The notes under the pieces: model-generated | Told to the model about the DNA's origin: nothing | Seen by the model: only the letters and a program-made list of their open reading frames with translations | The model's database searches: none | NCBI RefSeq assembly: GCF_011082725.1 | Contig: NZ_CP049715.1 | Coordinates: 186,001-250,000, forward strand | Reading direction: 5' to 3' | Source of the DNA: Apibacter sp. B3706 | Lineage (GTDB): Bacteria; Bacteroidota; Bacteroidia; Flavobacteriales; Weeksellaceae | Length of the DNA: 64,000 nt | In this document: piece after piece, positions 227-20,930 of the stretch | Layout of the letters: the number at the start of each line of letters is the position of its first letter | Position numbering within the stretch: position 1 is the first letter of the stretch | Position numbers and translations under genes: made by a program

Positions 227-1927
227 ATGAAGAATACATTAAATATTATCTTGCTTTCGTCAGCCTTTAATGGATTAACTCAAAGAGTCTGGCTTTCATT
301 GAAAGAAGCAGGATATCAGGTTAGTTTTTTACTTTTTACCACAGAGCAAGAGGTTATAGATTCAATCGAAACTGCCCATCCGGACCTTGTTATTTGTCCT
401 TTTTTAAAAGATAGAGTACCTGAAGTTCTTTGGAAAAATGAGACAAGACCTATTATAATTATCCATCCGGGTATTAGAGGAGATAGAGGAGCCTCTTCTT
501 TAGACTGGGCAATTTTAAGAAATTTTGACACATGGGGAGTAACTGCTTTACAAGCCGTAGAAGAAATGGATGCCGGACCCATTTGGGCAAGTCATGAATT
601 TAAAAAACCTGCTTTAATAAGAAAATCAGAGCTCTATAACAATTTTGTAAGTGATGCCGCTATAAAATGTATTTTTGAGGCTATTGATAAATTTATAAAT
701 AAAGAAAAACCCATCCCATTAGATTATAATAACGAAAATGTAAAGGGGAGGCTAGAACCTAATATGAAACAATCGGACCGTCATTTTGAATGGACTAGTT
801 CGGCAAAAGAAATTTTAAATATAGTAAATTCAGCAGAAGGAATTCCGGGAGTATTAGCAGAAATAGAAGGTGAAAAATTTTATATATATGATGCTTATTT
901 GGATCATCGTGAAGGTGAAGCGGGAAAACTTTTAGCCCGCCGTGAAGATGCAGTTTTAATTGGAACAGGAGAAAAAAGCTTATGGATTGGTTCGTTAAAA
1001 AGAGCAGCTAAAGACCAATTGCCCTTTAAACTACCGGCTGTACAAGTTTTAAAAGAAAAAGCAGAAAGTCTAAAAGATTTAACCCTTTCATTGTACAATA
1101 CGGTTTTATCTAATGAGGAATACTGTACAATACATTATTCCCAAAAAGGAAAAATAGGAGAGTTAACCTTTAATTTTTATAATGGTGCTATGAGTACCCA
1201 ACAATGTGAAAGGCTGATAAAAGCTATTCAATTTGCTAAAGAACAGGAAACTAATGTGTTGATAATTAAAGGGGGATATAATGCTTTTTCCAATGGTGTA
1301 CACCTTAATACGATAGAAGCAGCAGAAAATCCGGCAGAAGAGGCCTGGAAAAATATACATGCTATAGACGATGTATGTTTAGAACTTTTAGATACGAAAC
1401 AATGGGTAATTGCCGGTGTGACAGGAAGTGCCGGAGCGGGGGGAGTAATGTTAGCTTTAACAGCTGATTTTGTAGCTGCAAGAGATGGAATAATACTTAA
1501 TCCTCATTATGCCACGATGGGATTATATGGTTCAGAATATTGGACATATACTTTGCCTAAACGGGTAGGAGAGCAACAGGCTAGAAGGTTAACCGAAGAA
1601 TGTTTACCCGTAAGTGTAACCCGAGCATTGGAGATTGGATTAATTGATTCTATAGGTCCCAGAGAAATACACAATTTCAATGAATGGTTATGGGTACAAG
1701 CTAAAAAAGCAGAAGAAGTAAATAAAAAAGCCTCGAAAAAACCTTTTGATTCGGAAAAAGCAGCTGAGTGTAGAAAAAAAGAATTAGAAGAGATGAAAGA
1801 AGATATGCTTTACGACCGAAATTCTTTTTCTGTAAAAAGAAATTGTTTTGTGCTTAAAAAAAGAGCTTGTAATACTCCGGATCGATTGATCGCCAATTGG
1901 GCAAGAGTTAAACAAAATAAGGAATAA
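227..1927 (+). CDS. hypX: HypX-like hydrogenase maturation protein (formyl-THF to CO)
   Basis: This 566-residue protein has two domains. Residues 1-290 resemble a formyl-tetrahydrofolate hydrolase/transferase, with His80 in IIIIHPGIRGDRG and Asp115 in EEMDAGPIW. Residues about 297-510 resemble the enoyl-CoA hydratase (crotonase) fold, with the glycine-rich stretch GVTGSAGAGGVM. That order and length are typical of HypX/HoxX, which in the family makes the CO ligand of [NiFe] hydrogenase from formyl-THF under oxic conditions. The gene stands alone between two terminators and no other hyp or hydrogenase gene is in the window, so its hydrogenase must lie elsewhere. The family assignment is fairly sure; the physiological role is inferred. 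Confidence 0.85.
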   Translation: MKNTLNIILLSSAFNGLTQRVWLSLKEAGYQVSFLLFTTEQEVIDSIETAHPDLVICPFLKDRVPEVLWKNETRPIIIIHPGIRGDRGASSLDWAILRNFDTWGVTALQAVEEMDAGPIWASHEFKKPALIRKSELYNNFVSDAAIKCIFEAIDKFINKEKPIPLDYNNENVKGRLEPNMKQSDRHFEWTSSAKEILNIVNSAEGIPGVLAEIEGEKFYIYDAYLDHREGEAGKLLARREDAVLIGTGEKSLWIGSLKRAAKDQLPFKLPAVQVLKEKAESLKDLTLSLYNTVLSNEEYCTIHYSQKGKIGELTFNFYNGAMSTQQCERLIKAIQFAKEQETNVLIIKGGYNAFSNGVHLNTIEAAENPAEEAWKNIHAIDDVCLELLDTKQWVIAGVTGSAGAGGVMLALTADFVAARDGIILNPHYATMGLYGSEYWTYTLPKRVGEQQARRLTEECLPVSVTRALEIGLIDSIGPREIHNFNEWLWVQAKKAEEVNKKASKKPFDSEKAAECRKKELEEMKEDMLYDRNSFSVKRNCFVLKKRACNTPDRLIANWARVKQNKE

Positions 1928-2441: not shown

Positions 2442-3395
2442 TTAAAAAAGTTGTTTAGCAATTTTTCTTATATTTTCAGATCTTCCCATAGAATAAAAAT
2501 GAAGTACAGGAACTCCTTGCTTCATTAATTCCTTGCATTGACTAACCGTCCATTCTATTCCCACCTCATATACTGCTTTGTTATCCTTACATTTTTCAAC
2601 GGCCATAACTAATTCTTGAGGCATATCTATGTGAAAAATGTTTGGAAGAATGGTGAGATGTTTTTTTATGGATACAGGCTTTATGCCGGGTATGATCGGA
2701 ACAGTAATTCCGACATTTCTACACTTCTTTACAAACTCAAAATATTTAGTATTATCATAAAACAGTTGAGTAACAATGTAATCAGCTCCGGCATCAATTT
2801 TTTGCTTTAAATAATTTAAATCCGTATCTAAATTAGGGCTTTCAAAATGTTTTTCAGGATATCCGGCTATGCCAATACAAAAATCAGTAGCTCCATGAGC
2901 GTATTCTTCATGAAGATATTTACCTGAATTCATGTTTTGAACTTGAGACACCAGTTCATTAGCATATGAATGTCCTTGAGAGTGTGGTTTAAATATACCC
3001 TCACTTTTAATGGGATCTCCTCGTAAAACTAAAATATTATCAATACCTAAAAAATTAAAATCGATAAGAATATTTTCAGTTTCTTCTTTATTAAACCCAC
3101 CACATATTAAATGAGGCACTGCATCAACTTTATACTTTTGTTGAATTGCAGCACATATACCCACTGTACCGGGACGTTTTCTTGTAACAATTTTTTGTAT
3201 CAATCCATTAGGTAACTCTCTATATTCGTATTCTTCTCTATGATAGGTTACATCAATGAAAGGAGGATTAAATTCCATTAAAGGATCAATATTGGAAAAT
3301 ATATTTTGTAAATCTTCTCCTTTTTTAGGCGGGAGTATTTCGAAGGAAAATAAAGTTTTTCCCTTTGCTTTGGAAATATGTTCTGTAACTTTCAT
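2442..3395 (-). CDS. metF: 5,10-methylenetetrahydrofolate reductase
   Basis: This 317-residue flavoprotein reduces methylene-THF to methyl-THF, the methyl donor for methionine synthase. It has the TIM-barrel family marks: FSFEILPPKKGED near the N terminus, VTYHREEY, LVLRGDP, IGIAGYPEKH, GADYIVTQLFYD and PIIPGIKP. It is the first gene of a tight metF-folB pair. Both halves of its partner enzyme MetH are also in this window, at 19.8-20.8 kb and 32.0-34.7 kb, but not adjacent. Confidence 0.95.
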   Translation of the reverse strand: MKVTEHISKAKGKTLFSFEILPPKKGEDLQNIFSNIDPLMEFNPPFIDVTYHREEYEYRELPNGLIQKIVTRKRPGTVGICAAIQQKYKVDAVPHLICGGFNKEETENILIDFNFLGIDNILVLRGDPIKSEGIFKPHSQGHSYANELVSQVQNMNSGKYLHEEYAHGATDFCIGIAGYPEKHFESPNLDTDLNYLKQKIDAGADYIVTQLFYDNTKYFEFVKKCRNVGITVPIIPGIKPVSIKKHLTILPNIFHIDMPQELVMAVEKCKDNKAVYEVGIEWTVSQCKELMKQGVPVLHFYSMGRSENIRKIAKQLF

Positions 3396-7697: not shown

Positions 7698-8309
7698 ATG
7701 GTCAGAGATGTTTCAACAGAGCAAAAAATTAAAGAAGCTGCAAAGCGCGTTTTTCAAAAAAAAGGTTTTGGTTTAACTCGTACCCGAGATATAGCAAAAG
7801 AGGCGGGTATCAATTTGGCTCTGCTAAATTATTATTACAGAAGTAAAGAAAATTTATTTGAAATAGTGATGCAGGAGAGCATAGAAGAAATGTTTTCTTA
7901 TCTGGAACATATAATGAATAATAAGCAAACAACCTTGACCGAGAAAATAGATGCAGGAGTCTTAAGATATATAGAAGGAATGTCCAAAAATTCAAATTTG
8001 CCTCTTTTTTTATTCAGTGAATTACAGGCTAATCCTCAACATCTTTTTGATAGCGTTAAAATTCCTGAAGGTTTTATCCAAGAGACTTATATGTTTAAAC
8101 AGATTAATGAGCAAATAAATAAAGAAAAGTTAAATTTTACAGCTATACATTTTTTTATAAATCTTGTTTCCATGTCTATTTTTCCGATAATAGGGCAACC
8201 CTTTATAAAATATGTAACTAAAATGGATGAAAAAAGTTTTACAGATTTCATCGAACAACGAAAAACTTTAGTTCCAATCTGGTTAAAGTCAATGTTAAAG
8301 CTAGTATAA
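7698..8309 (+). CDS. TetR-family transcriptional regulator
   Basis: This is a 203-residue TetR/AcrR-type repressor. The N-terminal helix-turn-helix spans about residues 8-55 (EQKIKEAAKRVFQKKGF, then TRTRDIAKEAGINLALLNYYY with the typical YYY of the recognition helix). The C-terminal ligand domain is divergent. It is the first gene of a six-gene efflux operon, and the next gene starts 10 bases after its stop. It most likely represses its own operon in response to an exported compound, as CecR does for ybhGFSR in E. coli; the ligand cannot be read from sequence. Confidence 0.9.
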   Translation: MVRDVSTEQKIKEAAKRVFQKKGFGLTRTRDIAKEAGINLALLNYYYRSKENLFEIVMQESIEEMFSYLEHIMNNKQTTLTEKIDAGVLRYIEGMSKNSNLPLFLFSELQANPQHLFDSVKIPEGFIQETYMFKQINEQINKEKLNFTAIHFFINLVSMSIFPIIGQPFIKYVTKMDEKSFTDFIEQRKTLVPIWLKSMLKLV

Positions 8310-8319
8310 TAATGAGATT

Positions 8320-9585
8320 ATGAAAACTAAAACGTATATTTTTTTACAAGTATGTTTACTTCCTTGTCTATTGTTTTCACAGTTATCGGTAATAAATCTG
8401 GAAGAATGTCAGGAAAAAGCAAGAGAAAATTATCCGTTAATTAAACAATATGATTTAATTTCTCTAGCCGAAGACTATACTTTGGACAATTTGGCAAAAA
8501 ATTACTTGCCGCAAATTTCTCTCGGTGGACAGGCTTCTTATCAAACTCAAGTAACTAAAATACCCATAAAGATTCCGGGTTACAATATTCCCGAAATGGA
8601 CAAAGATCAATACAAAATAACTTTAGATGTTACACAATTGCTATGGGATGGAGGAGCAACGCGATCTCAAAAAAAAAATACCCAAGCGAATTCAGATTTT
8701 GAAAAGCAAAAGCTTGAAGTAAACTTATATACTGTAAGGGAAAAAATTAATCAATTGTATTTTGGAATTCTAACGATTGACAAGCAATTAAATCAATTGG
8801 ATGTTTTAAACTCCGATTTACAAACCAATTATAACCTGGTTAGTGCCATGCTAAAAAATGGTGTTGCCATGGTATCTGATTTAGATTTGGTTAAAGTGGA
8901 ATTATTAAATACCGATCAAAAAAGAATTGAGCTTACCACTTTACGAATGGCTTATATAAAAATGCTTTCTTTATTTATACATGAAGAAATAAGTCAAGGA
9001 GTTGAACTGAAACTTCCGGACAAAAGTATCAATTTTGATCAAGAGATTTCTCGTCCCGAATTAAGGATGTATGATAAGCAAAATTTAGTATATGAAGCTA
9101 AAGAAAGTACAATAAAAGCTAAAAATATGCCTAAATTTTCACTTTTTGCTCAAGGAGGATATGGAAAACCCGGTTTAAATATGTTGAACTCAGATTTTAA
9201 AACGTATGCTATTGGCGGGGTGCGTTTAAGTTGGAATTTTGGAAACTTATACACAAAGAAAAACGAATATCGATTGTTAAAAAATGACAGGAATTCACTT
9301 CAATCTCAAAGAGAAACCTTTTTATTTAACACCCATGTTCAGCTTACCCAAATTCAGAATGAAATAAATAAATATCAACAATTGATGGTAAAAGATGATG
9401 AAATTATTCGGTTGAGGAATAGTGTTAAAAAGGCCGGAGAAAGTAAGTATAAAAATGGAATTTACAATATGAATGATTTAATCGGAGATATTAATGCAGA
9501 AAATCAGGCACGAGTAACACAGTCTATACATGAAATGCAATATTTACAAAGTATCTATAATTATAAATATACACAAGGAAATTAG
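8320..9585 (+). CDS. TolC-family outer-membrane efflux channel
   Basis: This 421-residue protein has a signal peptide (cleavage near LLFSQLSVINLEE) and the OEP alpha-helical/beta-barrel pattern of TolC: NLEECQEKARENYP at the start, long amphipathic helices, DVTQLLWDGG, and a second half beginning near ARNMP-type sequence (KAKNMPKFSLFAQGGYG) with VRLSWNF. It would form the outer-membrane exit duct for the adaptor and ABC genes that follow. The adaptor gene starts 4 bases after its stop. Confidence 0.9.
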   Translation: MKTKTYIFLQVCLLPCLLFSQLSVINLEECQEKARENYPLIKQYDLISLAEDYTLDNLAKNYLPQISLGGQASYQTQVTKIPIKIPGYNIPEMDKDQYKITLDVTQLLWDGGATRSQKKNTQANSDFEKQKLEVNLYTVREKINQLYFGILTIDKQLNQLDVLNSDLQTNYNLVSAMLKNGVAMVSDLDLVKVELLNTDQKRIELTTLRMAYIKMLSLFIHEEISQGVELKLPDKSINFDQEISRPELRMYDKQNLVYEAKESTIKAKNMPKFSLFAQGGYGKPGLNMLNSDFKTYAIGGVRLSWNFGNLYTKKNEYRLLKNDRNSLQSQRETFLFNTHVQLTQIQNEINKYQQLMVKDDEIIRLRNSVKKAGESKYKNGIYNMNDLIGDINAENQARVTQSIHEMQYLQSIYNYKYTQGN

Positions 9586-9589
9586 AACT

Positions 9590-10486
9590 ATGAGACAGTT
9601 AATAATATTTACCCTGGGAACGTTTATGTTCCTGTTATCTTGTAATCGAAATAAGTTTGAGCATGATGCGTCGGGAACGTTTGAAGCAACTGAAGTAATT
9701 GTTTCATCGGAAGCTAACGGTAAATTGGAATCTTTTCAATTAACGGAAGGAGATCAATTGGCCAAAGGACAATACGTTGGATATGTTGACAGCATTCAGC
9801 TGTATTTAAAGAAAAGACAATTATTAGCCACCAATAAAGCCATACAGGTAAAAAGACCGGACATATCCGTCCAAGTTTCTTCCATAAAAGAACAAATTGC
9901 GAAAGCTGAATTTGAAAAAAGAAGAATTCAAAGATTATTGGCAGATAATGCAGCTACTCAAAAACAACTGGATGATGCAAATTCACAAATTGAAGTTCTT
10001 AAAAAATCTTTAAATGCGCAAGAAAATTCACTTTCAACATCGGTTAACAGTCTCAATGAGGAAAGTAACACCAATACAGTTCAAGTATCCCAAATAGAAG
10101 ATCAATTAAAAAAATGTAAAATTATTAATCCAATTCAGGGTACTGTTTTAAACAAATTTGTAGAAGAAAAAGAAGTTGTTACCCAAGGTAAAGCACTCTA
10201 TAAAATTGCAGATACCAAAAATTTATTTTTACGAGCATATATAGTTTCAGAACAATTAGAAAAAATTAAAATAGGACAGAAAGTAAAAGTATTTATAAAT
10301 ATTTCAGAAGATAAACAAAAATCCTATCAGGGCACTATTACATGGATATCCGATAAAGCCGAGTTCACTCCAAAAACTATTCAGACCCAAGATGAGCGTC
10401 AAAATTTAGTGTATGCGGTAAAAATCGCAGTAACAAATACTGACGGGCTTATTAAAATAGGTATGTATGGTGATGTAGATTTCTGA
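9590..10486 (+). CDS. HlyD-family periplasmic adaptor lipoprotein
   Basis: This 298-residue membrane-fusion protein links the ABC transporter to the TolC-like channel. I take the ATG at 9590 because it gives a clean lipoprotein signal (LGTFMFLLSC, lipid-modified Cys18). An upstream in-frame ATG at 9530 would overlap the tolC-like gene and put 20 non-signal residues in front. A lipoyl-like half (GTFEATEVIVSSEANGKL), a coiled coil at about residues 90-165, and a second lipoyl half (IINPIQGTVLNKFVEE) are visible. It is the ybhG equivalent of this operon. Confidence 0.9.
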   Translation: MRQLIIFTLGTFMFLLSCNRNKFEHDASGTFEATEVIVSSEANGKLESFQLTEGDQLAKGQYVGYVDSIQLYLKKRQLLATNKAIQVKRPDISVQVSSIKEQIAKAEFEKRRIQRLLADNAATQKQLDDANSQIEVLKKSLNAQENSLSTSVNSLNEESNTNTVQVSQIEDQLKKCKIINPIQGTVLNKFVEEKEVVTQGKALYKIADTKNLFLRAYIVSEQLEKIKIGQKVKVFINISEDKQKSYQGTITWISDKAEFTPKTIQTQDERQNLVYAVKIAVTNTDGLIKIGMYGDVDF

Positions 10487-10551
10487 TAAGTTCTATATTC
10501 ATTTTCTATAAGGAAACAAGAATAAATTCTAGTGAAGATATAATAAAGATA

Positions 10552-11463
10552 ATGAGTGTTATTTCCATACAAAATATTTCAAAAACCTATACGGGTAAAG
10601 TTCCGGTTGAAGCTTTACAAGATATATCTATTGAAATTAATAAAGGAGAATTATTTGGTTTAATAGGTCCCGATGGAGCAGGAAAGACCACTCTATTTAG
10701 AATATTAACCACTTTGTTGGTGGCTGATAAAGGAGAGGCATTTGTAGATGGGTTTGATGTAAAGAAAAACTTTTTACAAATACGGGAAAGAGTCGGGTAT
10801 ATGCCCGGTAAATTTTCGCTTTATCAAGATTTAAGTATTGAAGAGAATCTTAATTTTTTTGCTCGAGTATTCAATACAACGGTAGAAAAAAATTATGATT
10901 TAATTAAAGATATATATGTTCAAATCGAACCCTTCAAGAAGAGAAGAGCAGGTAAACTTTCGGGAGGAATGAAACAAAAACTAGCCCTATGTTGTGCCTT
11001 AATACATAAGCCTTCGGTTTTATTTTTAGATGAGCCGACCACAGGAGTAGATCCCGTATCCAGGAAAGAATTTTGGGATATGTTAACCCGACTTAAACAA
11101 CAGGGAATTACTATTATGGTTTCTACACCTTATATGGATGAAGCAAGTTTATGTGATAAGATTGCGCTAATTCAAGAAGGAAAAATACTTTCTGTCAATA
11201 CTCCTAAGCAGATTACGCAAGAATATCCGTATAAATTATATTCGGTGCGATCTGATAATAATTATAAACTTCTTCAGCAATTACGCAAACAAAAAGAAAT
11301 AAACAGCTGTTATATATTCGGAGAATATTTGCACGTGACATTTAAAAATGAAAAGGTTACGATAGAGGGAGCTGAAGTAAAAGAAATTGAACCGGGAATC
11401 GAAGATTGTTTTATTTATTTAATGAATAAAAATGAAAACCATAGTAACGAAAGGGTTAACTAA
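10552..11463 (+). CDS. ABC transporter ATP-binding protein (first ATPase)
   Basis: The 303-residue ATPase has Walker A GPDGAGKTTL, signature LSGGMKQKLAL and Walker B VLFLDEPTTGVDP. The family switch His is replaced: the loop reads VSTPYMDEA where VTTHYMDEA is expected. It pairs with the second ATPase, whose gene overlaps its 3' end by 32 bases. In E. coli the two domains are fused in YbhF; here they are separate genes. It powers the two ABC-2 permeases downstream. Confidence 0.93.
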   Translation: MSVISIQNISKTYTGKVPVEALQDISIEINKGELFGLIGPDGAGKTTLFRILTTLLVADKGEAFVDGFDVKKNFLQIRERVGYMPGKFSLYQDLSIEENLNFFARVFNTTVEKNYDLIKDIYVQIEPFKKRRAGKLSGGMKQKLALCCALIHKPSVLFLDEPTTGVDPVSRKEFWDMLTRLKQQGITIMVSTPYMDEASLCDKIALIQEGKILSVNTPKQITQEYPYKLYSVRSDNNYKLLQQLRKQKEINSCYIFGEYLHVTFKNEKVTIEGAEVKEIEPGIEDCFIYLMNKNENHSNERVN

Positions 11464-12163
11464 AAAATTTGGCGATTTTATTGCAGTCAATCATATAAGC
11501 TTTGAAGTATCCAAAGGTGAAATTTTTGGTTTTTTGGGAGCAAATGGTGCAGGAAAAACAACAGCCATACGAATGCTTTGTGGATTGTTATCTCCCACCT
11601 CAGGGGAAGGAATTGTTGCAGGATACGATATTTACAAAGAGTCGAATAAGATTAAAAAAAATATCGGATATATGAGCCAAAAATTTTCGTTATATGAAGA
11701 TTTAACCATTAAAGAAAATATGCGATTGTTTGGTGGTATTTATGGAATGAGCACTAAAGATATTAAAGTAAAAACAGAACAATGCTTAGAGGAACTTTCC
11801 TTAAAAACAGAAAGGGATGTTTTGGTTAAATCTTTACCCTTAGGAATTAAACAAAAAGTTTCTTTTGCAGTGTCGACCTTTCATTCTCCTGAAATTGTTT
11901 TTTTGGATGAACCCACCGGAGGAGTAGACCCCATAGCAAGACGTACTTTTTGGGAAATGATTTATAAGGCATCCAATAACGGGATAACCATTTTTGTTAC
12001 GACTCACTATATGGATGAAGCAGAATATTGTAATCGGGTTTCAATTATGGTCGATGGTAAAATTGAAGCATTGGATACGCCTGCGGGACTTCGTCATAAA
12101 TATCATGCGGAAACTATGGATGAAGTTTTTCAAATATTGGCAAGAGGAGCAAAAAGAGAATAG
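11432..12163 (+). CDS. ABC transporter ATP-binding protein (second ATPase)
   Basis: The 243-residue ATPase has Walker A GANGAGKTTA, Walker B IVFLDEPTGGVDP and the switch His in VTTHYMDEA. Its signature motif is degenerate (LPLGIKQKV instead of LSGGQ). The first ATPase has a good signature but lacks the switch His, so together they look like an asymmetric heterodimer with one competent and one weak ATP site. This is an inference from the motifs. Confidence 0.93.
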   Translation: MKTIVTKGLTKKFGDFIAVNHISFEVSKGEIFGFLGANGAGKTTAIRMLCGLLSPTSGEGIVAGYDIYKESNKIKKNIGYMSQKFSLYEDLTIKENMRLFGGIYGMSTKDIKVKTEQCLEELSLKTERDVLVKSLPLGIKQKVSFAVSTFHSPEIVFLDEPTGGVDPIARRTFWEMIYKASNNGITIFVTTHYMDEAEYCNRVSIMVDGKIEALDTPAGLRHKYHAETMDEVFQILARGAKRE

Positions 12164-12199
12164 ATTTTAACTAAATAAAGGAAAAAATAAGAATAGGGC

Positions 12200-13306
12200 A
12201 TGAATCAATTTTTTAGTTTTATAAAGAAAGAAATCTTTCACATCACCCGTGATTTTAGAACTATGCTTATGCTTTTAATTATGCCTATAGCACTTCTTAT
12301 GATATTTGGGTTTGCTATTACGACAGAAATTAAAAATACCTCTTTCATTGTATTAGATAATTCTAAAACCATCCAATCCATACAACTTATAGAACAAATA
12401 AATGCCAGTAAATATTTTGACCTTACAGGCTACCTGGACAAATTAGAACAGGTTGAACAACGTTTTCGCCTAGGAAAAGCTAAATTGGCGGTGGTTATTC
12501 CTCAAGGATTTGATAAAGACTTGTATCATCAAGGAACTAGTGATGTTCAACTTATTGTAGATGCATCAGATCCTAATGAAGCATCTACTATTGTTAGCTA
12601 CTTGCAACAAATTATAGCGGAATATCAAAAACTACAAATGAATAAAGCGAGTTCAGGTTCTTATGTAATTAAAAGTCAGGTTAAAATGCTTTATAATCCA
12701 CAATTAAAAAGTGCGTATAATTTTGTGCCGGGAATTATGGGATTGGTTCTTATGTTAATTTGTTCAATGATGACATCTATTTCTATTGTAAAAGAAAAAG
12801 AACAAGGAACTATGGAGATATTATTAGTTTCTCCTCTAAAACCCATAAGCATCGTATTAGCGAAAGTGGTTCCTTATTTCCTGATCTCCATTATTGACGT
12901 TTTTTCTATATTAATTATATCTGTTACCATCTTGGAAGTGCCAATTGAAGGAAATTTACTTTTACTTCTTTTTCTATGTACAATTTTCATTCTATCCACC
13001 TTATCGTTAGGGATTTTAATTTCATCCATAACGGAAACCCAACAGGCTGCCATGTTAATTTCGGGTATGGGATTATTGCTTCCCACATTATTGCTTTCTG
13101 GATTAATATTTCCCGTCGAAAATATGCCCTTACCGCTTAGAATAATATCAACCATTTTACCCGCTACCTGGTTTATTACTGCCGTTAAAGATGTAATGAT
13201 TAAAGGGCTTGGTTTTTTTGCTATCTGGCAAGAGTGTCTGATACTTATTGGTATGACTCTTTTCTTATTAGTGGTAAGTATCAAAATGTTTAAAAACAGG
13301 TTATGA
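12200..13306 (+). CDS. ABC-2 type permease (first)
   Basis: This 368-residue inner-membrane protein has the ABC-2 layout: one N-terminal membrane helix (RTMLMLLIMPIALLMIFGFA), a large extracytoplasmic domain at about residues 50-170, then five helices after the hallmark VKEKEQGTMEILLVSPL. It is most like YbhS. Its stop overlaps the start of the next permease by four bases (ATGA), indicating translational coupling. Confidence 0.92.
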   Translation: MNQFFSFIKKEIFHITRDFRTMLMLLIMPIALLMIFGFAITTEIKNTSFIVLDNSKTIQSIQLIEQINASKYFDLTGYLDKLEQVEQRFRLGKAKLAVVIPQGFDKDLYHQGTSDVQLIVDASDPNEASTIVSYLQQIIAEYQKLQMNKASSGSYVIKSQVKMLYNPQLKSAYNFVPGIMGLVLMLICSMMTSISIVKEKEQGTMEILLVSPLKPISIVLAKVVPYFLISIIDVFSILIISVTILEVPIEGNLLLLLFLCTIFILSTLSLGILISSITETQQAAMLISGMGLLLPTLLLSGLIFPVENMPLPLRIISTILPATWFITAVKDVMIKGLGFFAIWQECLILIGMTLFLLVVSIKMFKNRL

Positions 13307-14403
13307 GAACATTAAAATTTTTATTAGAAAAAGAATTCCTTCAGATATTCAGGAATAAAACTATTTTGAGATTGGTATTTTTTATGCCTGTTTTTCAATT
13401 ATTAGTATTGCCATGGGCAGCCACTTTTGAACAGAAAAATATCTTATTAAGCATAATAGATAACGATCACAGTTCTGCTTCCAGAGAATTGATACAAAAA
13501 GTAATTTCATCCGGATATTTTAAATTGGCCAATTATTCATCGTCTTATTCAGATGCATTGAAGATCGTTGAAAAAAATGAAGCAGACTTGATTTTAGAAA
13601 TTCCCCATAATTTTGAAAATACCTTTATAAGAGAAAAATCAACCGATGTTATGCTATCGGTAAATGCCATAAACGGACAAAAAGCAGGATTGGGATCTTC
13701 GTATTTAGGACAAATCTTAGCAGCTTACAATCGGGAACTGGTTAGTCAGTCTCAAGGTTCGGGACAAATTATTGTTAAGCCTTATTATATGTATAATACA
13801 GAAATGAATTATCGTAATTTTATGGTACCCGGTATTTTGGTTATGCTACTCAGTATTATAGGCGGAGCGCTTTCTTCCTTGAATATTGTTAAAGAAAAAG
13901 AAGCAGGAACCATTGAGCAAATCAATGTTACACCTATTCCAAAATATATTTTTATTATAGGAAAATTGATTCCATTTTGGGTTATGGGAATGTTTATACT
14001 AACTGTTGGTATGCTAATAGCCTGGTTGGTATACGGGTTAGTTCCGGCCGGTCATGCTCTAATAATTTATATATTTTGTTTTTTCTACCTGATTGCATTT
14101 ACCGGATTTGGGTTAATAATTTCAAATTTTTCATCTACACAACAACAGGCCATGTTTGTGTTGTTTTTTATTATAATTATATTTTTCTTATTGGGCGGAC
14201 TTTATACTCCGATAAGCAGTATGCCCAGATGGGCGCAAATCGTTACCATGTTTAATCCGGTACGTTACTTTATTGAAGTGATGAGGCTGGTTTATATGAA
14301 AGGAAGTACCTTGGCTGATATCTCTCATCAATTATATATAATTATTATCTTTGCTGTAGTGTTAAATGTAGGTGCAATTGTAAGCTACAAAAAAACAAAT
14401 TGA
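13303..14403 (+). CDS. ABC-2 type permease (second)
   Basis: This 366-residue paralogue of the preceding permease has the same layout and the hallmark VKEKEAGTIEQINVTPIP, and is most like YbhR. The two would form a heterodimeric channel. It is the last gene of the efflux operon; no terminator hairpin is obvious behind it, so some read-through into the symporter-thioesterase gene 111 bases downstream is possible. Confidence 0.92.
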   Translation: MRTLKFLLEKEFLQIFRNKTILRLVFFMPVFQLLVLPWAATFEQKNILLSIIDNDHSSASRELIQKVISSGYFKLANYSSSYSDALKIVEKNEADLILEIPHNFENTFIREKSTDVMLSVNAINGQKAGLGSSYLGQILAAYNRELVSQSQGSGQIIVKPYYMYNTEMNYRNFMVPGILVMLLSIIGGALSSLNIVKEKEAGTIEQINVTPIPKYIFIIGKLIPFWVMGMFILTVGMLIAWLVYGLVPAGHALIIYIFCFFYLIAFTGFGLIISNFSSTQQQAMFVLFFIIIIFFLLGGLYTPISSMPRWAQIVTMFNPVRYFIEVMRLVYMKGSTLADISHQLYIIIIFAVVLNVGAIVSYKKTN

Positions 14404-14430
14404 GAGTCTGAAAGAGTTATTTAAAGGCAT

Positions 14431-14442
14431 AGAACATGTTCT
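14431..14442. promoter_or_regulatory. Perfect 12-bp palindrome before the fusion gene
   Basis: AGAACATGTTCT is a perfect dyad in the 111-base gap between the last permease gene and the next start codon. It could be an operator. There is no T tract, so it is unlikely to be a terminator. Confidence 0.35.
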
Positions 14443-14514
14443 TTATAAGTTTCTTAAGCATTATTTTTGACATTAATAAATTAATGAAACAACATATACT
14501 TTAAACTAAAAGTA

Positions 14515-16389
14515 ATGAAATCTAAAATCATAAATTCTTTTTTTTGGGGAAATTCGGTTGCTCTATCCTGGTTGTGGGGATTAGGACTGTTTTTTTCCGT
14601 GCAAATAACTTATTTATTCGGTTTAACAGGTCTATTGGGTTTTGCTTTGTTAAACTCAATCGGATTATTTTTATTTGGTTATGGTACTCAAAAAATTGCC
14701 AATCGGGATAAAGGACAAGAATCATTAGAACGTTTTTATAAAAAATGGTATAAGCCGTTTCGCCTCAGTTTATATTTATATCAGTTATTGGCAATTACTT
14801 TAACCGTTTTTGCTACTGTAAAATATTTGTTTATTCCTTTGCTTACTTCTTATTGGCCGGGCTGGGATGATGGGGGAAGTATATTACAAATTTTTTCTTT
14901 ATTACTTGTGGTTTCATTGGTTATTTCTGCTTCCTGTTTACTGGGTGAAGAATTTTCGATTAAATCTATTAAATACTGGCATCTATTAATTGGAGCAGTT
15001 TTATTAGTCATAATTGTTTCCTTATTATCTTATTTACAACCTAAAGAAATATACAATTATCAAGCATGGGTAAAAAGTGAAACTCAAAAACCTATTTTCA
15101 TAGGCTATATGGTAGCCATTTTTGTTGGTTTTTTTGTAGGGCCTTGGCTGGATTTACAACAATGGCAGCGAGCTATACAAATGAGAAAAGAAGAAACCAA
15201 TATATGTACCGGATATTTTTTCGGATCCGTTATATTTTTTTTCCTGCTTATTTTTCATGGATTAATGGCAAGTTTTGTTTTTAACAGTAATTGGTTTAAT
15301 CCGAATATGGCATCGATTGGATTGGGAGGTATAAAATACGGTCATGAGCAAATTGTAAATTATATGATCCACTTTCGATCTACACTTCCCGAATGGGTTC
15401 CGCTTTCCTATTATTTATTTATAGTATTCGCAGTATTAACAACTTTAGATAGCGGATATGTTTCGACTCGGTGGTTTGTGAAAGAAGTTTCCAAATCCAG
15501 TAATAGTCCTGTTTTATCCATAATACCTAAAGGAATTGCAGATTCTCCCATCCCTACCTATATTTTGGCGGGTTTAATTACGATATTCTCTGTATTGGCA
15601 AATTTTGAATTGGAATATTTTATGGTATTTTATGCCACTTTTTTTGTGGCTTATGCCTCATTAGGTATAGCGCGTTGTTTTGTACCCAATTCACAGCATT
15701 CTTTACCTCAAGTGAAACTTTTTTCGATTGGAGCACTTTCATTAGTAATATTTGCCGGAGGTTATTTTATGCAAATGGCCGTATTGATGATAATAGGCTC
15801 AATACTTCCAATACTCTATGTGTTTTGGTTGGTTTTAAATACTGACTTACTACGAGTCGTGAAAGAGAAAGTTGAAGAAGTGATAGATGCTGCGTCCGAA
15901 ATTCCTGTATTAAAAAATTTATCTAAAGCAACTCATACAGCTATTAACGGGAAAACCTTGGAAGTTAGCACGGGAAGTCATTTTGAAGGTAAATGGTTTG
16001 TGCATTCCTTTATGGCAACCTATGCAGATACCAACTCAGTTGGAAATGTTTATTTTGGAGTTTATGCTCTTTGGGTTGGAAAGACGCGCGAATTATTTTT
16101 TAATTACGTATTACCCGATTTTAATTTAAAAGATACAACCTATTTAATATTAACACGATCTTTTGAACATAAATACATTACTGAAACTCGAGAATTCGAA
16201 CGGATAAGCGTAAAAATACGAGCTTCGGAATATAATCGAAAGATTGCCACTTTGGAACATCAAGTTTTCGATTCCGCCGGAAATTTATTGGGTAAAGGAA
16301 AACAACAATTAATATTTGTTTCTCCTAAAGATTACCGATTATTGGATATTCCTCCCGAAGTTATAAAAGCTTTTATGCCTTATATGTAA
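14515..16389 (+). CDS. Symporter-like membrane protein fused to a hot-dog thioesterase
   Basis: The 624-residue protein has two parts. Residues 1-445 form about 12 membrane helices in a layout like the sodium:solute symporter family, with GPWLDLQQWQRAIQM at about 209-223 and TTLDSGYVSTRW near 309-320 resembling family signature spots. After a short linker, residues about 490-605 look like a hot-dog acyl-thioesterase: YADTNSVGNVYFGVYALW with Asp505 at the catalytic position, then GKTRELFF. This matches the pattern ETNLVGNVYY of enediyne-type thioesterases and the broader FadM/YbgC group. The substrate is unknown. It directly follows the efflux operon in the same direction but may have its own promoter. 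The reading frame is intact, so the fusion looks genuine. Confidence 0.75.
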   Translation: MKSKIINSFFWGNSVALSWLWGLGLFFSVQITYLFGLTGLLGFALLNSIGLFLFGYGTQKIANRDKGQESLERFYKKWYKPFRLSLYLYQLLAITLTVFATVKYLFIPLLTSYWPGWDDGGSILQIFSLLLVVSLVISASCLLGEEFSIKSIKYWHLLIGAVLLVIIVSLLSYLQPKEIYNYQAWVKSETQKPIFIGYMVAIFVGFFVGPWLDLQQWQRAIQMRKEETNICTGYFFGSVIFFFLLIFHGLMASFVFNSNWFNPNMASIGLGGIKYGHEQIVNYMIHFRSTLPEWVPLSYYLFIVFAVLTTLDSGYVSTRWFVKEVSKSSNSPVLSIIPKGIADSPIPTYILAGLITIFSVLANFELEYFMVFYATFFVAYASLGIARCFVPNSQHSLPQVKLFSIGALSLVIFAGGYFMQMAVLMIIGSILPILYVFWLVLNTDLLRVVKEKVEEVIDAASEIPVLKNLSKATHTAINGKTLEVSTGSHFEGKWFVHSFMATYADTNSVGNVYFGVYALWVGKTRELFFNYVLPDFNLKDTTYLILTRSFEHKYITETREFERISVKIRASEYNRKIATLEHQVFDSAGNLLGKGKQQLIFVSPKDYRLLDIPPEVIKAFMPYM

Positions 16390-19768: not shown

Positions 19769-20767
19769 TTATTTGGTAAAAGATATTGTTCGAGGAGTAT
19801 AGTTTGAAGCCAATTCACTAAAAAGCTTAATATGATCAGGAGTTGTTCCACAACATCCACCCAAAATATTCACCAGTTGATTTTCCAAATATAATTGAAC
19901 TTTTTCAGCCATCATTTCCGGCGTTTCATCATATCCGCCTAAAGGATTGGGTAATCCGGCATTAGGATAGGCGCTAAGGTAAAAAGGTGCTTTATTAGCC
20001 AATATTTCCAAATATTGAAAAAGTTGTTCAGCACCCAAAGCACAGTTTAATCCAATGGACAATAAAGGTAAATGTGATAAAGAAACTAAAAAGGCTTCCG
20101 TCGTTTGTCCGGATAATGTCCTTCCCGCCGCATCAGTAATTGTGCCTGAAGCCATTAGGGGAAGTTTTTTGCCGGTTTTATCGAAAGCTTCCTCAATACC
20201 AAAAAAAGCAGCCTTAGCATTTAAAGTATCAAAGATAGTTTCCACTAAAAGAATATCGGCTCCGGCTTGAATAAGAGATACTGCTTGTTCTTTATAAATT
20301 TCCGCTAAATAATCAAAATCTACTTCACGGTAAGCAGGGTCATTAACATCAGGAGAAATAGAAGCGGTTTTTGAGGTCGGGCCCATGGAACCGGCAATAA
20401 AAAGAGGTTTTGTGCCATTTTTGTTCCAATATTCCTCTCGGGCCTGTTTAGCTACTTGAACAGAAGCAAAATTAAGCTCATGTACCCAATCCTGCATATC
20501 ATAGTCAGTCATGGAAATTCGGTTCGAATTAAATGTATTCGTTTCGATAATATCAGCTCCTGCCTCAAAATATTCCAAATGAATATTTTTAATAATATCC
20601 GGTTGTGTAATGGACAACAAATCATTATTTCCCTTTAAATCTGTTTTCCAATCCCTAAATCTAGCGCCTCTATAATCTTCTTCATTTAATTTAAAACGTT
20701 GAATCATGGTTCCCATGGCTCCGTCCAAGATCAGAATCTTATGTTTAATGAGTTCTTCTATTTTCAT
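19769..20767 (-). CDS. Homocysteine S-methyltransferase module (MetH N-terminal half)
   Basis: The 332-residue protein corresponds to the zinc/homocysteine-binding domain of cobalamin-dependent methionine synthase. It shows LILDGAMGTMIQ, GGCCGTTPDHI with Cys305 and Cys306, and GLNCALG with Cys242 as the third zinc ligand. It lacks the folate, B12 and reactivation domains, which sit in a separate gene at 32008-34671. I place the start at the ATG at 20767: the in-frame codons up to 20797 overlap a promoter element at 20787-20794. Split MetH occurs in Bacteroidetes, but the halves are often neighbours; here 11 kb lies between them. Confidence 0.92.
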   Translation of the reverse strand: MKIEELIKHKILILDGAMGTMIQRFKLNEEDYRGARFRDWKTDLKGNNDLLSITQPDIIKNIHLEYFEAGADIIETNTFNSNRISMTDYDMQDWVHELNFASVQVAKQAREEYWNKNGTKPLFIAGSMGPTSKTASISPDVNDPAYREVDFDYLAEIYKEQAVSLIQAGADILLVETIFDTLNAKAAFFGIEEAFDKTGKKLPLMASGTITDAAGRTLSGQTTEAFLVSLSHLPLLSIGLNCALGAEQLFQYLEILANKAPFYLSAYPNAGLPNPLGGYDETPEMMAEKVQLYLENQLVNILGGCCGTTPDHIKLFSELASNYTPRTISFTK

Positions 20768-20786
20768 GTTACAAGTTACCTTCATA

Positions 20787-20794
20787 CAAAAGTA
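20787..20794 (-). promoter_or_regulatory. Promoter -7 element of the MetH N-terminal gene
   Basis: It reads TACTTTTG on the minus strand, matching TAnnTTTG, 20 bases before the chosen ATG. It argues against a longer reading frame starting at 20797. Confidence 0.55.
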
Positions 20795-20930
20795 CATAAA
20801 ACATTATAAGTTTCTTAAAATTAAAATTCTTATAAACTATTTGTGTGTACACTTGCAATTAAAACAGATAAATACAATTGAATAAATAAAAAGGATCGAA
20901 ATGAGAAAATCAAGAGTAGTTTATGAGCAA

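What the first reader, a model, noticed from the sequence alone, without database searches (positions are those of the whole stretch)
14515..16389. Sodium/solute-symporter-like transporter fused to a hot-dog thioesterase
A single intact frame joins about 12 membrane helices of symporter type to a C-terminal domain with the YADTNSVGNVYF motif of acyl-thioesterases. I know of no described protein with this pairing. A cytosolic thioesterase fixed to a carrier could free an acid from its CoA or ACP thioester right where it is moved. The gene directly follows an export operon.
Basis: partly seen in the sequence, partly recalled or inferred. Interest (0 to 1): 0.65.

Follow-up and report, generated by a model that had tools for sequence, protein, structure and literature searches.

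The report
Carrier fused to acyl thioesterase
One bacterial membrane protein joins a sodium-symporter-type carrier to an enzyme domain that cuts acyl thioesters; the pairing is real and found in several bacterial phyla, but what it moves and what it cuts is still unknown.

Summary
ORF 14515-16389 (624 aa, Apibacter) is one open frame. Residues 1-442 model as a 12-helix LeuT-fold domain closest to solved sodium/solute symporters (pLDDT 90; VIA Z 30.2 to DUR3, 28.6 to CHT1; hhalign 99.0% to a Pfam-SSF protein), although no Pfam model catches it. Residues 490-624 are a hot-dog thioesterase (Pfam 4HBT_2) nearest CalE7/DynE7/SgcE10/EspE7. The fusion is no artefact: it is in 5 of 9 Apibacter genomes, on a Methylorubrum megaplasmid, and in 80 of the 80 loci kept from a scan of species genomes, mostly Verrucomicrobiota. 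In one verrucomicrobial order, 57 of 57 uninterrupted genes found with the carrier domain alone also hold the thioesterase. D505, N507, R525 and T547 are invariant in 52 of 52 sequences. Charge counts put the thioesterase in the cytosol. The upstream exporter operon was found only in Apibacter, so it says little about function. Best reading: a membrane-tethered acyl thioesterase working with an SSS-type carrier on an organic acid; substrate and coupling are inferred, not shown. Apibacter probably gained the gene from Verrucomicrobiota. A new variant of a known kind (SSS domain with a cytosolic partner, as in CbrA).

The parts
14515..16389 (+). fusion gene, 624 aa, carrier domain plus thioesterase in one frame
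   Evidence: same single frame in relatives
14515..15840 (+). residues 1-442, 12-helix SSS-type (LeuT-fold) carrier domain
   Evidence: AlphaFold2 pLDDT 90.4, pTM 0.90; VIA Z 30.2 to DUR3; hhalign 99.0% to an SSF protein; no Pfam match
15139..15165 (+). GPWLDLQQW (residues 209-217); every residue invariant but L214
   Evidence: 52-row alignment
15439..15459 (+). TTLDSGY (residues 309-315), core helix 8; T309/T310 are the candidate Na2-site hydroxyls
   Evidence: T309 is T or S in 51 of 52, T310 in 52 of 52; lines up with STLDSG of an SSF protein
15841..15981 (+). residues 443-489, linker, poorly predicted (445-486 under pLDDT 50), 44-102 residues long in the family
15982..16386 (+). residues 490-624, hot-dog acyl thioesterase domain (4HBT_2, CalE7/DynE7-like)
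16021..16056 (+). YADTNSVGNVYF (residues 503-514) with D505 and N507
   Evidence: D505 and N507 invariant in 52 of 52
16087..16089 (+). R525, in the column of the residue changed in EspE7 R35A
   Evidence: invariant in 52 of 52; alignment, entry title
14404..14514 (+). gap between the exporter operon and the gene; may hold a promoter of its own
   Evidence: sequence-level resemblance of the gaps in L015 and L016, judged by eye; promoter scan no better than shuffles
7698..14403 (+). neighbouring exporter operon (TetR, outer-membrane efflux protein, HlyD-type, two ABC ATPases, two ABC-2 permeases); context, not part of the fusion
   Evidence: kept in 4 of 5 Apibacter loci

Best explanation
SHOWN: one frame encodes an SSS-type (LeuT-fold) carrier domain and a 4HBT_2/CalE7-like hot-dog thioesterase; this fusion is conserved across several phyla, both halves are under purifying selection, and the thioesterase is predicted to lie in the cytosol. 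INFERRED: the protein is a membrane-tethered acyl-CoA or acyl-ACP thioesterase whose carrier half moves the acid (or an acid-like solute) that the thioesterase half releases, probably coupled to Na+ through the helix-8 site T309/T310, so that thioester cleavage at the inner mouth of the carrier sets the pool of free acid there. Apibacter probably gained the gene from Verrucomicrobiota. The confidence given is for the joint-handling mechanism; the architecture itself I hold at about 0.97.
For: 4HBT_2 match in 52 of 52 members; D505, N507, R525, T547 invariant; fold hits to CalE7, SgcE10, DynE7, EspE7. SSS fold Z 30.2 to 24, hhalign 99.0% to an SSF protein, helix-8 T/S pair conserved. Positive-inside count 18 in, 5 out. 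The halves evolve together: distance correlation 0.89, 0 of 2000 permutations as high; the thioesterase is the more conserved half in 1326 of 1326 pairs. All computable dN/dS among Apibacter under 0.12. The domains stay in one frame in 57 of 57 complete genes.
Against: No substrate, no activity and no coupling is shown. SSS carriers usually import solute with Na+, which does not fit simple export of a freed acid, and a thioesterase would undo the activation of an imported one. No gene neighbour is shared across phyla. The active-site region 501-520 of the model is poorly predicted (pLDDT 54-59, 508-511 under 50). Distant stand-alone relatives of the membrane half exist without a thioesterase (L104-L106), so the membrane half can work without one.
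Confidence: 0.4

Rival explanations
1. The hot-dog domain is mainly a sensor: it binds a cytosolic acyl-CoA and opens or closes the carrier, a feedback on uptake, in the way that signalling domains sit on the SSS domain of CbrA.
For: SSS domains fused to cytosolic signalling domains are known (CbrA, MxtR; passages of PMC7918813); the carrier's helix-8 segment is invariant.
Against: D505, N507, R525 and T547 are all invariant and the domain is the slower-evolving half, more than ligand binding alone would need.
Confidence: 0.2
2. The membrane half no longer transports and only anchors or localises the thioesterase at the membrane.
For: The thioesterase half is more conserved in 1326 of 1326 pairs; no Pfam or NCBIfam transporter model matches the membrane half.
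Against: W19, W21, G22, G24, Q30, D213, R219, H248, D312, Y315, E365, E367 and R387 are invariant over several phyla, and the model keeps the broken helices of the LeuT fold; a mere anchor would not need them.
Confidence: 0.15
3. Two independent activities joined only for co-expression: uptake of some solute, and a general acyl-CoA recycling thioesterase, without shared substrate or coupling.
For: No functional link between the halves is shown; the linker is long, of varying length and poorly predicted.
Against: No complete split pair was seen in one order (57 of 57), and the fusion persists across phyla, which suggests that being joined matters.
Confidence: 0.17
4. Sequencing, assembly or gene-calling artefact.
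For: None for this gene; L026 and L080 show a frame break near the gene start, on metagenome contigs.
Against: Same single frame in unrelated genomes and low dN/dS.
Confidence: 0.01

Closest known systems
Solute/sodium symporter family (SSS, TC 2.A.21, SLC5; Pfam SSF PF00474): DUR3, CHT1, SGLT1, SiaT
   Same: Fold over residues 2-442 (Z 30.2 to 24), profile-profile homology to an SSF protein, T/S pair on core helix 8.
   Different: Not matched by the SSF model (0 of 52); 12 helices, beginning at SSS core helix 1, so the extra N-terminal helix is missing (alignment starts at residue 47-93 of the SSS chains); carries a C-terminal thioesterase.
CalE7 / DynE7 / SgcE10 / EspE7 hot-dog thioesterases of enediyne pathways
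   Same: Nearest solved relatives by sequence and fold; D/E-T-N and W-x-G-x-x-R motifs.
   Different: Those are free-standing proteins; here the domain is joined to a carrier and no polyketide synthase gene lies next to it in the window.
CbrA / MxtR (SSS domain fused to sensor-kinase domains)
   Same: SSS-type membrane domain with a cytosolic C-terminal partner (passages of PMC7918813).
   Different: Partner is STAC-PAS-kinase, not an enzyme of acyl metabolism; 13 helices; no thioesterase.
Vectorial acylation systems (FATP/FadD) and LplT-Aas fusions (recalled, not from a call)
   Same: Movement of an acyl compound joined to an enzyme of acyl transfer.
   Different: Those attach the acyl group to CoA, ACP or lipid; here the enzyme domain would release it.

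Membership tests
SSS family (TC 2.A.21, Pfam SSF) | LeuT-type fold close to solved SSS transporters | tested here: met
   VIA Z 30.2 DUR3 (rmsd 3.6, 398 aligned), 28.6 CHT1, 25.7 SGLT1, 24.7 SiaT; other LeuT folds appear from rank 14, tied with the lower SSS rows
SSS family (TC 2.A.21, Pfam SSF) | Match to Pfam SSF above its cut-off | tested here: not met
   0 of 52 members match SSF; so I file it as SSS-type / SSS-related, not as a member of PF00474
SSS family (TC 2.A.21, Pfam SSF) | Sequence homology to an accepted SSF protein | tested here: met
   hhalign probability 99.0, E 2.9e-18, to L112, which is Pfam SSF at E 3.2e-28
SSS family (TC 2.A.21, Pfam SSF) | Two Ser/Thr of the Na2 site on core helix 8 | tested here: met
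   T309 is T/S in 51 of 52, T310 in 52 of 52; the site is described in PMC7918813 (passages); sequence level only
SSS family (TC 2.A.21, Pfam SSF) | Extra N-terminal helix before the LeuT core (13 or more helices) | tested here: not met
   12 helices in the model; the alignment begins at residue 47-93 of SSS chains; that 13 is usual is from PMC7918813 (CbrA/MxtR passage) and recall
SSS family (TC 2.A.21, Pfam SSF) | Na+-coupled solute transport | not testable with these tools
   needs a transport assay
4HBT_2 hot-dog thioesterases (PF13279) | Match above the curated cut-off | tested here: met
   35.6 bits, cut-off 25.5; 52 of 52 members match
4HBT_2 hot-dog thioesterases (PF13279) | Hot-dog fold | tested here: met
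   Foldseek: CalE7 2.6e-7, YbgC-type and others follow
4HBT_2 hot-dog thioesterases (PF13279) | Hydrolysis of an acyl thioester | not testable with these tools
   needs an enzyme assay
CalE7/DynE7 enediyne thioesterases | Conserved catalytic Asn and Arg | tested here: met
   N507 and R525 invariant in 52 of 52; R525 in the EspE7 R35A column; the catalytic role of Asn19/Arg37 in CalE7 is recalled, the paper was not held
CalE7/DynE7 enediyne thioesterases | Free-standing enzyme encoded beside an enediyne polyketide synthase | tested here: not met
   Fused to a carrier; no synthase gene nearby in the window; ketosynthase searches found no large synthase frame in 5 of 5 non-Apibacter carriers tested
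MenI (DHNA-CoA hydrolase) | NCBIfam MenI_Staph cut-off | tested here: not met
   26.2 of 225 bits

The most novel reading that the evidence does not exclude
Vectorial deacylation: the thioesterase cuts a particular acyl thioester while docked on the carrier, and the released acid is handed straight into the translocation path (or its release gates the carrier), so that thioester hydrolysis is coupled to movement of the acid across the membrane, the reverse of vectorial acylation.
Probability: 0.12. Interest if true: 0.85.

Novelty: new variant of a known kind. Interest (0 to 1): 0.55.

Why it matters
It is a conserved two-domain family spread over Verrucomicrobiota, Sumerlaeota, Bacteroidota and Pseudomonadota, whose membrane half no Pfam model catches, so automatic annotation is likely to show a thioesterase alone. 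If the halves are coupled, one purified protein would let thioester chemistry and solute transport be studied together. It also points to an unknown organic-acid step in bee-gut Apibacter and in freshwater and soil Verrucomicrobiota (habitats recalled, not from a call).

Tried and rejected
Membrane half: Pfam (52 members), NCBIfam and PHROGs (query only) gave no named family; one PHROG of unknown function covers residues 13-434 at E 6.1e-5 and was not followed. A sequence profile of it found no related PDB chain (one chance match at E 2.8), so its placement rests on fold and profile-profile evidence. Foldseek alone ranked NKCC1 first at poor rmsd; I relied on the VIA realignment.

Export-operon link: rejected as a functional clue. 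The whole operon was found beside the gene in 4 of 5 Apibacter loci and not in A. muscae; in other taxa only generic ABC ATPases (23-32% identity, 13 loci) matched, with many flanks short. ABC-2-type permease clusters do lie 2-5 kb away in several verrucomicrobial loci (clusters 15, 16, 18, 6-7 loci each, named by eye) but did not match the Apibacter permeases at E <= 1e-8. MenI role: rejected, 26 of 225 bits, and the gene is missing from 4 of 9 Apibacter genomes. Sole 4HBT_2 protein of the genome: rejected, two others exist. Partner of the PfaA-type synthase of Apibacter: large ketosynthase frames are in 5 of 5 Apibacter with the fusion, but also in 2 of 4 without it (G001 both frames, G002 the larger only; G005 and the 83%-complete G006 none), and in 0 of 5 non-Apibacter carriers tested; not supported as a general role. 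Shared neighbours across phyla: none found. A GH75-like lipoprotein gene follows on the same strand in 32 of 71 loci with at least 700 bp downstream: 31 titled as Verrucomicrobiota and L071 titled 'Proteobacteria bacterium'; L077 probably makes 33. Four of four longer copies scanned match PF07335, a truncated one (L065) does not. Its meaning is unknown.

Biases: the 80 loci are the best 80 of 132 confirmed against the full-length query, which favours fused genes. The domain-only searches are the fairer test: order of G449, 63 of 197 genomes by the membrane domain and 63 of 147 by the thioesterase; Verrucomicrobiota at large 7 of 240, 3 near-full and 4 short distant matches; Sumerlaeota 11 of 40; family of Arachidicoccus 2 of 147; Bacteroidota 1 of 395, the window itself, with a single sequence. 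Of the 4 distant matches I read three (L104-L106): stand-alone membrane proteins without a thioesterase. Rows left out before the 52-row alignment: L026, L061, L065, L080, L083, L087, L088, L093 (truncated or frame-broken) and rows at 90% identity or more to a kept one.

Full report
WHAT IS THERE. The window is G000:C1:186001-250000 of a 2.3-Mb single-contig genome; the named genomes with the closest copies of this gene are Apibacter mensalis, an uncultured Apibacter and A. muscae, so I take it as Apibacter. The frame 14515-16389 is open, 624 residues. It begins 111 bp after an exporter operon (TetR, outer-membrane efflux protein, ABC ATPase and two ABC-2 permeases by Pfam; the HlyD-type gene and the second ATPase by eye) and is followed by a dicarboxylate-symporter-type gene on the other strand.

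THE C-TERMINAL HALF. Residues 504-620 match Pfam 4HBT_2 with 35.6 bits, cut-off 25.5; all 52 aligned members match it. The nearest solved proteins by sequence are CalE7 (E 7.5e-8), SgcE10, the Actinomadura enzyme 5vpj, EspE7 and DynE7; a 20-row profile reaches 6.2e-14 with 5vpj. In the AlphaFold2 model of the whole protein (mean pLDDT 84.4, pTM 0.77) the domain is a hot dog and Foldseek ranks CalE7 first, E 2.6e-7; residues 501-520 are poorly predicted. D505, N507, R525 and T547 are invariant in 52 of 52. R525 lines up with the position changed in the EspE7 R35A entry. The catalytic role of Asn19 and Arg37 in CalE7 is my recall; the paper was not held. In the S. [quoted passage not shown]

THE N-TERMINAL HALF. 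No Pfam model matches it in 52 members, nor NCBIfam in the query, and a sequence profile finds no related PDB chain. Folded alone with 19 relatives it gives pLDDT 90.4 and pTM 0.90. VIA-align puts SSS transporters first: DUR3 Z 30.2 (rmsd 3.6, 398 aligned), CHT1 28.6, SGLT1 25.7, SiaT 24.7; other LeuT folds come in from rank 14, tied with the lower SSS rows. A profile search of one order also hit L112, a Pfam SSF protein at E 3.2e-28, and hhalign joins the two with probability 99.0, E 2.9e-18, our TTLDSGY on its STLDSG. In SSS proteins two Ser/Thr of core helix 8 bind the Na2 sodium (passages of PMC7918813); here T309 is T or S in 51 of 52 and T310 is invariant. With helix limits set by me from the model, K+R number 18 on inner and 5 on outer loops in the query, 14.5 and 4.9 on average in the family. 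Twelve helices then put both ends, and the thioesterase, in the cytosol.

IS THE FUSION REAL? Yes. Full-length single-frame relatives at 75-91% identity are in 4 other Apibacter genomes, 5 of 9 with this one. The Methylorubrum extorquens AM1 megaplasmid carries one at 30% over the full length, its thioesterase part at 55%. A scan of one genome per species for patterns of the membrane domain gave 132 confirmed places; of the best 80, all 80 hold both domains in one frame, two of them cut by a contig end inside the thioesterase. That ranking favours fused genes, so I also searched one verrucomicrobial order with each domain alone. The membrane domain gave 60 near-full matches in 197 genomes: 57 in frames of 597-829 aa, 3 in shorter frames that run into contig ends. 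The thioesterase, in 147 genomes, gave 57 full matches in those same 57 frames, 4 in short frames, and 4 partial matches, of which two (G820, G795) are unexplained fragments. No complete split pair was seen.

HISTORY. In a 54-row tree Apibacter sits beside three Verrucomicrobiales genomes, 100/99 support; their bin names suggest insect gut to me, which the records do not say. With the single sequence of the membrane half, 0 of 394 other sampled Bacteroidota matched; with the profile, 2 of 147 genomes of the Arachidicoccus family did. Transfer from Verrucomicrobiota is the simplest reading; the deep branches are unsure (long branches). The halves have travelled together: their distances correlate at 0.89 (0 of 2000 permutations as high), and the thioesterase is the more conserved half in 1326 of 1326 pairs, 74% against 54% mean identity. 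Among five Apibacter copies every computable dN/dS is under 0.12 in carrier, linker and thioesterase; many dS values were saturated.

HOW IT MAY WORK. Invariant active-site residues suggest an active thioesterase, and the invariant helix-8 segment and other core residues a working carrier; neither was tested. A cytosolic thioesterase on an SSS-type carrier most simply means that one organic acid is handled by both: released from CoA or ACP, and moved. Direction is the weak point, as SSS carriers usually import with Na+. A sensor role of the hot dog, an anchor role of the membrane half and two uncoupled activities stay open, at the odds given. Context does not decide: the exporter operon is limited to 4 of 5 Apibacter loci, a GH75-like lipoprotein follows in 32 of 71 loci, and I found no gene shared across phyla.

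KNOWN OR NEW? SSS domains fused to cytosolic signalling domains are known (CbrA, MxtR; passages of PMC7918813). I found no paper on an SSS-thioesterase protein with the searches, in an open-access library that lacks most subscription journals. Public genomes hold many copies, so the family is, as far as I could see, undescribed rather than unseen. I rate it a new variant of a known kind.

Noticed in passing
L125:1791-16692 (G000:C1:1823790-1838691), outside the window: A PfaA-type polyunsaturated-fatty-acid/polyketide synthase (2380 aa, NCBIfam TIGR02813 1030.6 bits, cut-off 1010.1) followed by a 1441-aa ketosynthase/acyltransferase/phosphopantetheinyl-transferase protein, an alpha/beta hydrolase and a UDP-glycosyltransferase-type protein; the next gene looks like a second glycosyltransferase by eye. 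A glycolipid-like gene cluster; large ketosynthase frames are in 7 of 9 Apibacter genomes.
   Followed up: partly
L028:9831-11132 and 31 further loci: In Verrucomicrobiota a lipoprotein-like GH75 (chitosanase-family, PF07335) gene follows the fusion gene directly on the same strand in 32 of 71 loci.
   Followed up: partly
L104:1426-2652, L105:712-1980, L106:631-1821: Stand-alone distant relatives of the membrane half (about 390-420 aa, no thioesterase); the one scanned (L104) has no Pfam match.
   Followed up: partly
window 227-1927: A 566-aa protein that by eye looks like HypX (formyltransferase plus enoyl-CoA-hydratase-like halves, a hydrogenase-maturation protein); not tested with any search (sequence).
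   Followed up: no
window 19769-20797: A 342-aa protein that by eye looks like the homocysteine-methyltransferase domain of MetH on its own, with a MetF-like gene at 2442-3395; a split MetH is possible, not tested (sequences).
   Followed up: no
window 14431-14442: Perfect 12-bp palindrome AGAACATGTTCT between the exporter operon and the fusion gene; not seen in the same gap of three other Apibacter, so perhaps chance.
   Followed up: partly
window 14515-15840: PHROG family phrog_20720 (unknown function) matches residues 13-434 at E 6.1e-5, so phages or prophages may carry SSS-like proteins related to this half.
   Followed up: no
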